Below are positions 58,219-61,369 of a stretch of DNA of 64,000 nt, in pieces. The DNA is from Leucobacter weissii (GTDB lineage: Bacteria > Actinomycetota > Actinomycetes > Actinomycetales > Microbacteriaceae), in contig NZ_JAGDYM010000011.1 in NCBI RefSeq assembly GCF_017565745.1, positions 124,001-188,000 of the forward strand. Direction: 5' to 3'. Numbering within the stretch: the stretch's first letter is position 1; each line of letters begins with the position of its first letter. A program made the position numbers and the translations under genes. The notes below the pieces were generated by a model. The model worked only from the letters and a program-made list of their open reading frames with translations, was not told the origin of the DNA and did no database searches.

Positions 58219-58295
58219 GGCCGTGATGCGCGTTCGCCCGCAGCGACCGGCCGAGCGCGCGCGGGCCGCGACCCGTGCCACGAGCGGCGGGCCCG

Positions 58296-59324
58296 ATGGG
58301 AGGTGAGACGAGGCCGCGCTCCCGGAAGCGCCGCGCCGAACGGAGATCGCTGACGATCACGCGGCGCCGGGAGGACGACGCGTTCGTCTACCTGCGACGC
58401 GGACGCCGCATCCGATCCCGGCGCGAGATCGAACGGATCGAGGCCCTGGTCATCCCGCCCGCGTGGGAGGAGGTGCGCATCGCGCACTCGCCTCGGGCGA
58501 AAGTGCTCGCGATCGGGGTCGATCAGGCGGGAAGACGGCAGTCGATCTACCACCCGTCCTTCCGTCGTCGCCGCGAGCGGGAGAAATACGCTCGCCTCAC
58601 CGAGTTCGCCGATGCCCTGCCGAAGCTGCGTGCGCGCGTCGACCGGGATCTGCGGCGGCGCGGGCTGCCCAAGGACCGGGTCGTGGCGTGCGTGATCCGG
58701 CTGATCGACCTGCACTACTTCCGCGTCGGGAACCACCGGTACGCGGAGCTGCATCAGAGCTACGGCGTCACGACGCTCACCGAGGAGCACGTCGAGGCGA
58801 GCGCCGGCGGCCTGCGGTTCGACTTCACGGGCAAGAGCGGGAAGCGCCAGCGCGTCCGGGCGCGCGACGCGCGCGCGGCCCGGGTGGTCTCGCAACTGCT
58901 CGAGATCCCGGGCCCGGAGGTGTTCCGCTTCTTCGACGAGGACGGCGTCCTGCGCCGCGTGCGCAGCCGCGACGTCAACGCCTACGTGCGACGGCACACC
59001 GGCGGGGGAGCGTTCACCGCGAAGGACTTCCGCACCTGGGGCGGCACGCTGATCGCGTGCGCCGAGCTGTTCGCCTCAGACGCCGAGTCGTGGGCGAGTC
59101 CCGAGTCGCGCGCCGCCGCCACGCGGGCGATCGTCCAGCGGGTCGCGGAGCGACTCGGCAACACGCCGGCCGTCGCGAAGGGCTCGTACATCGCGCCACG
59201 GCTGCTCGAGCTCTGCGAGGATCCGGAGGCGATCGAGGCGGCGAGACGCGAGCGCAGCCGTCTTCGCGAGCGCACCCACTTCTCGGTCGACGAGCAGTCG
59301 CTGGTCCGGATCCTCCGGAGCTAG
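58296..59324 (+). CDS. DNA topoisomerase IB (poxvirus-like)
   Basis: Relaxes DNA through a 3'-phosphotyrosine; 342 residues. DFTGKSGKRQRV holds the active Lys, FTAKDFRTWGGTLI an active Arg, and the C-terminal AKGSYIAPRLLEL the Tyr nucleophile. ATG 58296 is chosen; GTG 58275 is in frame. Its TAG stop lies in the CTAG that bounds an inserted element, and the last codons form the left arm of the older hairpin. Confidence 0.93.
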   Translation: MGGETRPRSRKRRAERRSLTITRRREDDAFVYLRRGRRIRSRREIERIEALVIPPAWEEVRIAHSPRAKVLAIGVDQAGRRQSIYHPSFRRRREREKYARLTEFADALPKLRARVDRDLRRRGLPKDRVVACVIRLIDLHYFRVGNHRYAELHQSYGVTTLTEEHVEASAGGLRFDFTGKSGKRQRVRARDARAARVVSQLLEIPGPEVFRFFDEDGVLRRVRSRDVNAYVRRHTGGGAFTAKDFRTWGGTLIACAELFASDAESWASPESRAAATRAIVQRVAERLGNTPAVAKGSYIAPRLLELCEDPEAIEAARRERSRLRERTHFSVDEQSLVRILRS

Positions 59325-59609
59325 GGCATGTCTCGCAGATCCTGCGTCTGCTGCGCGAGCCCTGGCGGCACGTCTTGCTGCGTTGTCGTCAGTCGACGGC
59401 GCGGCAGAGCGTTGCTCTGCCCTGGGCGCCTGCACCGAGGGCCGCATACGGCCCTCGGCACGTGGGCGCGCAACGCGATGCGTTGCTTCGAGCGCCCGGT
59501 GCGAGCCTTCCGGCATCGCCTCTCTCCTCCGCCTCGCGATACGCACCGCCGGGGCTCTGCTCGCGACGACGAAGATCTACGAGACATGCCCTAGCTCCGG
59601 GGGATCCGG
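59306..59609. terminator. 15-base terminator-like palindrome split by an insertion
   Basis: CCGGATCCTCCGGAG (59306-59320) is inverted as CTCCGGGGGATCCGG (59595-59609), 14 of 15 pairs matching. Joining the flanks with one CTAG rebuilds a hairpin with a CTAG loop between the convergent topoisomerase and mgtE genes. The 266-base element sits at the apex. Confidence 0.7.
59325..59590. mobile_element. MITE-like element 1 (266 bases), CTAG on both sides
   Basis: Inverted ends GGCATGTCTCG-x-AGATC (left 59325-59341) and its complement (right 59574-59590), with weaker similarity for about 45 bases. CTAG stands at 59321-59324 and 59591-59594 like a target duplication. Inside are strong hairpins: GCAGAGC-GTT-GCTCTGC (59404-59420), CCGAGGGCCG-CATA-CGGCCCTCGG (59435-59458) and GCAACGC-GAT-GCGTTGC (59470-59486, extended by GGGCGC/GCGCCC). 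No protein is encoded. Likely a non-autonomous transposon relic or a structured repeat. Confidence 0.65.
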
Positions 59610-59612
59610 CGT

Positions 59613-60971
59613 TCACAGGCCGAGGACGGCGCGGGCGATCAGGAAGTAGATGATCAGCCCGGTGGCGTCCACGAAGGTGGTGATGAACGGGTTGGAGAAG
59701 ACGGCGGGGTCGACGCGGATCGCGCGCGCGACGAGCGGCATGATCCCGCCGATGGTGGCCGCCGCGGTGCACACGGCGAGCAGGGTCAGGCCGATCACCA
59801 GGCCGACCTGCGGCGCGTAGACCAGCGCGGTGATCGCGAAGCCGATCGCGCCCAGCAGCAGGCCGAGCATCGCACCGACGCGCATCTCGCGGGTGAGGAC
59901 CTTGAGCACGTCCGGGGGCCGCACGTCGCCCAGCGCGAGGGCGCGGGTGACGGTCGTGGCGGCCTGGTTGCCGGTGTTGCCGCCGGTGCCGATCAGCAGG
60001 GGCACGAACAGGGCCAGCACGGTCAGCTGCTCCAGGGTGGCCTCGAACACCGAGAGCACCTGCACGGTCAGCGTCGCACCGATCGCGAGGACCAGCAGCC
60101 ACACCACCCGCGAGCGCACGATGCTGAGCACCGGCGTGGAGAGGTACGGTCGGCGCAGCGGCTCCACGCCGCCCTGGCGGGCCGCATCCTCGCTCTCCTC
60201 GTGCTCCAGGATCCGCACCGCGTCGTCGATCGTGAGGATGCCCACCAGCCGCGACTCGCTGTCCACCACCGGCAGGGCGAGCACGCCGAGGTCCGCGCAG
60301 CGACGGGCGGCGAGCTCGGCGTCCTCGGTCGCGCCGGCGGTGTGCGCGTCGCGCATCACCGATGCGACCGCCGCGGTGTCGTCGGCGCCGAGCAGGTCGC
60401 GCAGGCTGACGACCCCGACGATGCGCCGTTCGTGGTCGAGGACGGGCAGGGTGTAGACGGTCTCGGCGTCGTGAACGCGCGGCCGCAGGCGGGCCAGCGT
60501 CTCGCCCACCGTCCGCTCCGGATGGGTGGTGAGCACTTCGGGGCTCATCCGCCGCCCGATCGAGCCGTTCGGATACCCCAGCACTTCGGCCGTGAGCTGA
60601 CGCTCGTGCTCGGGCAGCCCCCGGAGCAGACGCTGGGCGACCAGCGCGGGCAGCTCGTCCAGCAGCCACACCCGGTCGTCCGGATCCAGCTCGGCGAACA
60701 GCGCCGCGACCTCGCCGTCCTGCAGCCCCGCCACCAGCTCGCCCTGCAGCGTCGGCGGGAACGCCTCGAACACCTCGAGCGCCTGCTGCTTCGGAAGCAG
60801 CCGGTACACTACCGCGCGCTGCCGGGCGTTGAGTCGCTCGAGCGCCGCGACGAGCTGTCGCGTGGTCAGCTCCCCGATCGCCGCCGCGAGTCCGCTCAGA
60901 TCCCGGCTGTTCACGGATTCGGTGATCGTGTCGATCACAGCGGTCGGGGGACGGGTCTGGTCATCGGTCAT
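59613..60971 (-). CDS. mgtE: Magnesium transporter MgtE
   Basis: Channel-like Mg importer of 452 residues. N domain (ALFAELDPDDRVWLLDELPA), two CBS domains (LPVLDHERRIVGVVSLRDLL; LPVVDSESRLVGILTIDDAV), then five membrane helices with PLLIGTGGNTGNQAATTV, the conserved selectivity segment. ATG 60971 is chosen by the MTDDQ start; a longer frame is open upstream. Preceded by a long structured leader. Confidence 0.95.
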   Translation of the reverse strand: MTDDQTRPPTAVIDTITESVNSRDLSGLAAAIGELTTRQLVAALERLNARQRAVVYRLLPKQQALEVFEAFPPTLQGELVAGLQDGEVAALFAELDPDDRVWLLDELPALVAQRLLRGLPEHERQLTAEVLGYPNGSIGRRMSPEVLTTHPERTVGETLARLRPRVHDAETVYTLPVLDHERRIVGVVSLRDLLGADDTAAVASVMRDAHTAGATEDAELAARRCADLGVLALPVVDSESRLVGILTIDDAVRILEHEESEDAARQGGVEPLRRPYLSTPVLSIVRSRVVWLLVLAIGATLTVQVLSVFEATLEQLTVLALFVPLLIGTGGNTGNQAATTVTRALALGDVRPPDVLKVLTREMRVGAMLGLLLGAIGFAITALVYAPQVGLVIGLTLLAVCTAAATIGGIMPLVARAIRVDPAVFSNPFITTFVDATGLIIYFLIARAVLGL

Positions 60972-61369
60972 GATGCTGCTCTCTCTGGGTCGGCATGCGT
61001 CGCTCCCGTGCGGACGGGGTGCCGGCGGCACGCGCGCCCGCACGGGAGCGGGCGGCGCGCCTCGATGCGCGCCAGCCGCGCGTGCGGAAGGAAGGAAACG
61101 GTGTGGGGAACCTCGCCGGGTGTCCGCGCGGGTCCGCTTCCTCCGGCTCAGCGGGAGAGCAGGGCAGAACGCGGAACGGGCGCGGTGCCCGGACTATGAT
61201 CGTCGCTCGACAACAGGCACTCACCTCGCTTCGGCGTCTGGCGCCGGCGCGCCACCCCAGCAGATCGACTGGCGTGAGCACGGCGGCGCGGAATCGCTCC
61301 CAGTATATATACGAAGGATCGCGAGCGGGCGGCCTTCGGCACGCGTAGAGTCGTGTGCGGGAGGGTGGT
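60972..61369. promoter_or_regulatory. Divergent region: structured mgtE leader and shared promoter
   Basis: No gene is seen. Toward mgtE (minus strand) the leader contains GGCGCGC-CTCGAT-GCGCGCC (61054-61073) and a perfect 12-base stem GCTCCCGTGCGG (61002-61013)/CCGCACGGGAGC (61038-61049) with an inner GTGCC-GGC-GGCAC, ending 31 bases before the start. AGGTGAGTGCCT (minus, 61226-61215) recalls the first block of the M-box but the rest of that riboswitch is missing. A palindrome GTATATATAC (61303-61312) can supply -10 elements in both directions (TATACT leftward). Confidence 0.5.

What the first reader, a model, noticed from the sequence alone, without database searches (positions are those of the whole stretch)
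59306..59609. A 266-base element sits exactly at the apex of a terminator palindrome
The flanks CCGGATCCTCCGGAG and CTCCGGGGGATCCGG are inverted copies (14 of 15), and with a single CTAG between them they form a perfect-looking terminator hairpin. The element splits it at the CTAG loop and leaves CTAG on both sides. This reads as insertion with 4-base target duplication at the tip of a hairpin, i.e. a target chosen by structure and CTAG. The element itself has three strong internal hairpins.
Basis: partly seen in the sequence, partly recalled or inferred. Interest (0 to 1): 0.78.

Follow-up and report, generated by a model that had tools for sequence, protein, structure and literature searches.

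The report
Mobile hairpin with swappable ends
A short gene-less mobile DNA element jumped into the four letters CTAG at the tip of a gene-end hairpin; the tip itself looks like coincidence, but the element carries a small core sequence that turns up, with different ends attached, in distantly related bacteria.

Summary
In detail: a CTAG-flanked 266-bp element (59325-59590) splits a 14/15 palindrome. It is a MITE, a non-autonomous IS5-family derivative: its ends recur in this genome and in 10 of 53 congeners, four of which hold 921-940 bp IS5-family elements with those ends. Structure-chosen targeting is not supported: of 32 paired insertions only this one has palindromic flanks (the others 1-8 of 15). 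The target is CTAG, 17-fold depleted here and often a stop codon (18/32 insertions, 17/72 background).

The unexpected part is inside. A core, GCGTTGTCGTC-(covarying hairpin)-CTCCTCCGCCTYGC, recurs in at least 119 stretches of public genomes, mostly Actinomycetota, also Bacillota MAGs, with unrelated ends. In 13 elements found by ends and length, core halves are 93-96% identical, arms 63-64%. The window copy is a chimera: 151/154 interior bases match a copy whose arms are only 62-65% alike. Some cores lack mobile ends and follow housekeeping genes. Best reading: a MITE whose hairpin core is a conserved, end-swapping module, probably a gene-end structure. No Rfam match; function untested; three CTAG-flanked relatives lack the core.

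The parts
58275..59324 (+). DNA topoisomerase IB gene; its TAG stop lies inside the left CTAG
   Evidence: ORF; Pfam Topoisom_I 1.6e-34 and Top1B_N_bact
59306..59320 (+). left arm of the interrupted gene-end palindrome
   Evidence: 14/15 inverse match
59321..59324 (.). left CTAG, target duplication
   Evidence: direct reading; CTAG on both sides of 23 of 32 paired copies
59325..59590 (.). 266-bp MITE
   Evidence: partial and complete relatives in the same genome and in congeners
59325..59343 (+). left terminal inverted repeat, shared with autonomous IS5-family elements of the genus
59380..59390 (+). conserved core, left half GCGTTGTCGTC
59399..59506 (+). extra segment (net about 105 bp) at the core's apex, absent from the 161-bp copy on contig C14, present in the copy on C19 that has other arms
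59403..59421 (+). internal hairpin 1 GGCAGAGCGTTGCTCTGCC
   Evidence: direct reading, fold
59435..59458 (+). internal hairpin 2 CCGAGGGCCGCATACGGCCCTCGG
   Evidence: direct reading, fold
59470..59486 (+). internal hairpin 3 GCAACGCGATGCGTTGC; similar palindromes occur alone elsewhere
59524..59537 (+). conserved core, right half CTCCTCCGCCTCGC
59572..59590 (-). right terminal inverted repeat (17 of 19 identical to the left one)
59591..59594 (.). right CTAG
   Evidence: direct reading
59595..59609 (+). right arm of the interrupted palindrome
59613..61043 (-). mgtE magnesium transporter gene, convergent with the topoisomerase gene
   Evidence: TIGR00400 5e-108

Best explanation
SHOWN from sequence: the 266 bp are a MITE whose ends match those of IS5-family insertion sequences of the same genus, sitting in a CTAG that was both the stop codon of the topoisomerase gene and the loop of a hairpin between two convergent genes. 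INFERRED: an IS5 transposase recognises the ends and CTAG; the hairpin tip is incidental. SHOWN: the MITE is built around a hairpin core that is more conserved than its ends, occurs with many different ends in Actinomycetota and some Bacillota, and has been recombined with other arms inside this genome. INFERRED: the core is a functional module, probably a gene-end (terminator or mRNA 3'-end) hairpin, since copies without mobile ends stand right after stop codons of housekeeping genes; selfish elements keep it because it lets them sit at gene ends harmlessly, and exchange ends around it to use whichever IS5-type transposase is present.
For: Same ends with CTAG elsewhere in this genome: 7 exact end matches from 5 elements. 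Ends in 10 of 53 congeners, reversed-pattern control 0. 921-940 bp elements with those ends and CTAG; their two frames match IS5 model NF033580 (110.6 bits, cut-off 110, and 92.9 bits for the second half alone), DUF4096 and DDE_Tnp_1. Palindromic flanks 1 of 32. Stop-codon enrichment 18/32 versus 17/72, Fisher p 0.0017. Core identity 0.93 and 0.96 versus arms 0.64 and 0.63 in the 13 elements of 158-161 bp found by their ends. Chimera: interior 151/154 identical to C19 copy, arms 36/51 and 40/52 aligned bases, while arms to the C14 copy are 53/55 and 56/57. Core spread: at least 119 stretches, 35 of 396 genomes of the phylum sample, 25 of 151 of one family, own included where it belongs. Only about 62 central nt of a 231-bp Lachnospiraceae query match, in the 10 of 17 Streptomyces plasmid records listed, best E 8e-13. 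Apical stem 91% paired, 85 doubly changed cells versus 26 shuffled, 2 G-U of 222. Cores without ends follow EF-Ts, S15, hibernation-factor, lipoyl-ligase, glutaredoxin genes.
Against: No transposase relative in this draft assembly (the same query matched 11 of 12 other genomes), so present mobility here is not shown; no empty site. Of 20 short paired elements of this end-family, 14 have both core halves and 6 do not; three of those six (67-75 bp: L096, L103, L126) have CTAG on both sides, so the core is not needed to be inserted. The 119 stretches were picked by an exact pattern, so invariance there is partly by selection. Two of five covariation measures do not exceed shuffles (pairs with double change 5 versus 5.0; further pair types 12 versus 14.5), and relatedness inflates the others. 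The consensus fold gave only the 5-bp apical stem and a 3-pair local helix, no arm pairing. DNA folds of two end-less copies (L230, L255) are no more stable than shuffles, z 1.33 and -0.82. The gene-end class is 13 of 75 end-less matches, and 8 frames end equally close on the other side, so orientation is only suggestive. No expression or termination data.
Confidence: 0.72

Rival explanations
1. Ordinary MITE family; the core is only an old interior that spread by horizontal transfer with its element, has no function, and looks conserved because exact patterns were used to collect it.
For: Patchy distribution (11 of 54, 35 of 396, 25 of 151 genomes); collection by exact pattern; core-less CTAG-flanked relatives exist.
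Against: Core far more conserved than arms in elements found by ends; divergent but recognisable core in other classes with unrelated ends; covarying apical stem; gene-end copies without mobile ends.
Confidence: 0.2
2. Structure-directed insertion: the transposase prefers CTAG at hairpin tips.
For: One clear example, 14/15; REP-targeting insertion sequences exist (PMC1525189, passages seen).
Against: 31 of 32 insertions are not at palindromes and lie in the range of 72 background CTAGs.
Confidence: 0.03
3. The core is a mobile hairpin tip that itself inserts at the apex of pre-existing palindromes (MITE arms, terminators), so the arms are targets and not ends.
For: Same core on unrelated stems, both MITE arms and gene-end stems; extra apical segment in the window copy.
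Against: Left arm length is nearly constant (52-54 nt in 40 of 46, though many of these are related Streptomyces elements) and bases near the core are semi-conserved, which random target stems would not show.
Confidence: 0.05
4. The flanking palindrome was not a pre-existing terminator but arose after insertion by template switching that copied one flank as an inverted repeat.
For: The left arm is coding sequence of the topoisomerase gene; no relative shows the empty palindrome.
Against: Hairpins overlapping stop codons between convergent genes are not unusual (general knowledge); nothing in the sequence requires the copying.
Confidence: 0.1

Closest known systems
IS5-family-derived MITEs (IS427-like parents)
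   Same: Short, no transposase, terminal inverted repeats shared with autonomous IS5-family elements, CTAG duplication, several copies; the parents have two overlapping frames, as IS427-group elements do (PMC3281130, passages seen, which also gives 2- or 4-bp duplications for that group)
   Different: Here the interior is more conserved than the ends and recurs with unrelated ends across phyla; usual MITEs share ends and vary inside (general knowledge). Assignment to the IS427 group itself was not tested
REP / BIME / REPIN palindromes
   Same: Small extragenic imperfect palindromes with conserved unpaired bases, non-autonomous
   Different: REPs are 20-40 bp, tagged GTAG or CGTC, predominantly in gamma- and alpha-Proteobacteria, GTAG types with RAYT tyrosine transposases (PMC3733652, passages seen); here ends shared with DDE-type elements, CTAG duplication, Actinomycetota and Bacillota
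REP-targeting insertion sequences (IS1397, IS621, ISPpu9)
   Same: An element inside a palindrome (PMC1525189, passages seen)
   Different: They hit palindromes repeatedly; this family does not (1 of 32)
TRIT terminators of mycobacteria (RNIE model)
   Same: Conserved actinobacterial gene-end hairpin family (recalled; PMC3526491, passages seen, only mentions the model)
   Different: Could not be compared: the RNIE paper is not held
TIMEs and mosaic non-autonomous elements
   Same: Modular miniature elements (PMC4133298, search listing and start of abstract only)
   Different: Tn3-derived by its title; not compared further

Membership tests
MITE of the IS5 family | no transposase coding capacity, under about 300 bp | tested here: met
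   266 bp; both 88-aa frames without Pfam match
MITE of the IS5 family | terminal inverted repeats shared with an autonomous IS | tested here: met
   same end pattern on 921-940 bp elements in G005, G010, G064, G066; transposase frames of the G066 element match NF033580
MITE of the IS5 family | short target duplication, CTAG | tested here: met
   CTAG both sides in the window copy and in 23 of 32 pairs; the other 9 have one changed side
MITE of the IS5 family | several copies in the genome | tested here: met
MITE of the IS5 family | mobilising transposase in the same genome | tested here: not met
   no match in the own draft assembly of 29 contigs; the same query matched 11 of 12 other genomes. 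Not strictly defining, since copies can outlive their transposase
MITE of the IS5 family | empty site in a close relative | tested here: inconclusive
   gene neighbourhood not shared by any of 53 genus relatives searched
hairpin-apex-targeting IS | repeated insertion at palindrome tips | tested here: not met
   1 of 32
intrinsic terminator (the interrupted palindrome) | stem-loop followed by a T-run | tested here: not met
   stem present, no T-run at 59610-59620
REP element | 20-40 bp, GTAG or CGTC tag, RAYT association | not tested
   size differs; tags and RAYT not searched
Rfam family | match at gathering score | tested here: not met
   0 matches in the window; only weak matches far below gathering scores at loose thresholds

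The most novel reading that the evidence does not exclude
A conserved gene-end hairpin module of Gram-positive bacteria, not in Rfam 15, serves as the shared heart of a superfamily of miniature transposons that change their ends, and with them their transposase, while keeping the core; the same module is fixed after housekeeping genes. Selfish element and host 3'-end signal would be two states of one sequence.
Probability: 0.33. Interest if true: 0.8.

Novelty: new variant of a known kind. Interest (0 to 1): 0.6.

Why it matters
MITEs are usually defined by their ends. Here the ends are the replaceable part and a small hairpin core is what persists across two phyla. That makes testable how non-autonomous elements outlive the transposases that move them, and whether bacteria recruit them as gene-end signals. 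The core also gives a handle to annotate many unlabelled repeats in Streptomyces and other actinomycete genomes.

Tried and rejected
Tried: exact end pattern in genome contigs, 0 stretches (records near the own genome may be left out there); Rfam at gathering and loose thresholds; phages with the own core, 5 records, E about 4, chance; viral contigs, 1 stretch for the main core and 2 stretches of one contig for the variant core; literature on MITE cores, CTAG, REP targets, terminators: nothing in the listings describes this core; core strings in papers: 0 papers with two of six strings, 5 papers with one of six, judged unrelated from listing and abstract starts only. Gene order around topoisomerase IB and mgtE gave no empty site; several reading frames were misread, so I rest nothing on it beyond a few legible protein tails. 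My first automatic end-detection mixed true CTAG ends with chance short repeats and was replaced by a YTAR-restricted one. Considered and dropped without a test: integron attC-like site, IS200/IS605 hairpins, CsrA or anti-Shine-Dalgarno RNA roles.

Rows dropped before counts: locus L110 and unpaired single ends were left out of the 32 insertion pairs. One search used 13 of the 20 short pairs (those of 158-161 bp); of the other 7 the window copy has both core halves and 6 lack a full core. Alignment A1 holds 38 of the 50 references plus 7 from the genus. Class counts rest on a simple stop-to-stop frame rule. The 18/32 versus 17/72 comparison sets insertions from several genomes against background CTAGs of the own genome only. 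Model matches at E up to 0.001 include coding sequence and other doubtful ones (for example L342, L383, L389), so genome tallies are upper-side estimates.

Full report
THE SITE. The element (59325-59590) is bracketed by CTAG and by a 14/15 inverted repeat. The left CTAG contains the TAG stop codon of a topoisomerase IB gene (58275-59324; Pfam), and the right palindrome arm ends three bases before the stop of a convergent mgtE gene (59613-61043). Without the element, the 34 bases fold into a 15-pair stem with a CTAG loop: a terminator-like hairpin between convergent genes, without a T-run.

WHAT THE ELEMENT IS. Own-genome search found related pieces: a 161-bp copy on C14 with CTAG on both sides, a 120-bp one on C25 with one changed side, single ends on C19, C28 and C29 and a 38-bp one on C12. 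The end pattern occurs in 11 of 54 genus genomes, the own one included, at up to 2 mismatches (reversed control 0), and in 15 of 54 with a looser pattern (2 control matches in all). Of 32 paired insertions, 12 are elements of 921-940 bp in G005, G010, G064 and G066 and 20 are short (38-266 bp, thirteen of them 158-161 bp); 23 of 32 have CTAG on both sides. The long element examined, in G066, carries two overlapping frames that match the IS5-family model NF033580 (first frame just above the cut-off, second below it on its own), DUF4096 and DDE_Tnp_1. The own assembly has no such transposase, while the same query matched 11 of 12 other chosen genomes (not G047), so the local copies are orphans in this draft. 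The genus is probably Leucobacter: G041 contig C2 has the same length, 415189, as Leucobacter chironomi record NZ_ATXU01000002.

THE TARGET. CTAG occurs 72 times outside element ends in 464 kb of this genome, against 1241 expected from composition; no background CTAG has more than 8/15 palindromic flank matches. Of 32 paired insertions, 31 score 1-8 and only the window site 14. Eighteen of 32 insertion CTAGs are stop codons of coding-like frames, against 17 of 72 background CTAGs (p 0.0017; background from one genome only) (all). So the rule is CTAG, and surviving insertions tend to lie at gene ends; one of them happened to be a hairpin tip. No empty site could be found: 25 relatives have the topoisomerase gene, 18 of these also mgtE, never side by side.

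THE CORE. The C19 copy (136946) shares the window copy's interior but not its ends: 151 of 154 interior bases identical, arms 36 of 51 and 40 of 52 aligned bases (0.62 and 0.65 of columns; 95% of shuffles below 0.58); the C14 copy shares the arms (53/55, 56/57) and the core (48 of 49) but lacks the 105-bp apical segment. The window copy is therefore a chimera of one arm set and another interior. In the 13 genus elements of 158-161 bp found by their ends, mean pairwise identity is 0.93 and 0.96 for the two core halves, 0.64 and 0.63 for the arms, 0.67 for the apex and 0.71 and 0.77 for the very ends used to find them. Six of the 20 short elements lack a full core; three of these, of 67-75 bp, have CTAG on both sides, so the core is not required for insertion. 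A scan of GTDB genomes for GCGTTGTCGTCN{12,40}CTCCTCCGCCTYGC stopped at its limit with 119 stretches; of the 80 record titles shown, 5 are Clostridiales, Lachnospiraceae, Gracilibacteraceae or Peptococcaceae, the other 75 Actinomycetota by recalled taxonomy. With one viral contig there are 121 matches; 46 have YTAR plus terminal repeats by my rule, 39 of them CTAG on both sides, with the core 52-54 nt from the left end in 40 of 46 (many of these are related Streptomyces elements). Arms range from GC-rich to AT-rich. With a 231-bp Lachnospiraceae stretch as query, only about 62 central nt match, in the 10 of 17 Streptomyces plasmid records listed. A covariance model gives matches in 11 of 54 genus genomes, 35 of 396 phylum genomes (24 of 237 genera) and 25 of 151 genomes of another family, some of them doubtful coding sequence; other classes carry a variant core GCGTTGCTCGTC...CTCCTCGCGCCTTGC with still other ends.

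STRUCTURE. The 5-bp apical stem pairs in 91.4% of 222 cells, with 85 cells changed on both sides against 26 in shuffles and a covariation score of 0.92 against 0.22; sliding the partners destroys it; only 2 cells are G-U. Two further measures do not exceed shuffles. Watson-Crick-only covariation fits a hairpin that must form on both strands or as DNA (inference). RNAalifold did not recover arm pairing, and single-sequence DNA folds of two end-less copies are not better than shuffles; this weakens any detailed structural claim.

GENE-END COPIES. Among 75 matches without detected ends, 13 have a frame of at least 100 codons ending 13-32 nt before GCGTTG, and 8 have one ending 2-29 nt beyond the other side. 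Twelve of the 13 left frames match Pfam families, among them EF-Ts, ribosomal protein S15, ribosome hibernation factor, cytochrome c assembly, lipoyl ligase, glutaredoxin, ABC ATPase and an S4 domain; 3 of the 8 right frames do (FKBP twice, a weak DivIVA). A preferred orientation, and with it an RNA-level gene-end role, is suggested, not shown.

NOVELTY. No Rfam 15 family matches. Text searches for core strings found no relevant paper, and topic searches listed no description. Subscription papers, ISfinder and the RNIE/TRIT model could not be checked. The site itself is a new member of a known kind; the core-conserved, end-swapping arrangement is a new variant.

Noticed in passing
L006, L009, L011, L013-L015 (own genome), L021, L023-L025 (relatives): Palindromes like GCAACGCGATGCGTTGC recur alone outside this element in the genome and in congeners; the third internal hairpin of the window element is one of them.
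   Followed up: partly
G009 (L022, L028, L030, L031, L033-L035): 17 core-model matches in one complete genome; the 7 distinct copies printed have quite different ends, close to CTAGTGTCCCGTGTCGCAA.
   Followed up: partly
L230, L238, L259, L313: Core hairpins with partly duplicated or tandem neighbouring sequence.
   Followed up: no
G050 and G058, for example C5, C6, C8, C40, C60: Another end family, CTAGGGCGTGTCTCCTATAT, lies near many contig ends, with partial IS5 transposase matches there: probably collapsed IS copies in draft assemblies.
   Followed up: no
window, whole: CTAG is about 13 times rarer in the window (13 versus 172) and 17 times rarer in 464 kb than base composition predicts.
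   Followed up: yes
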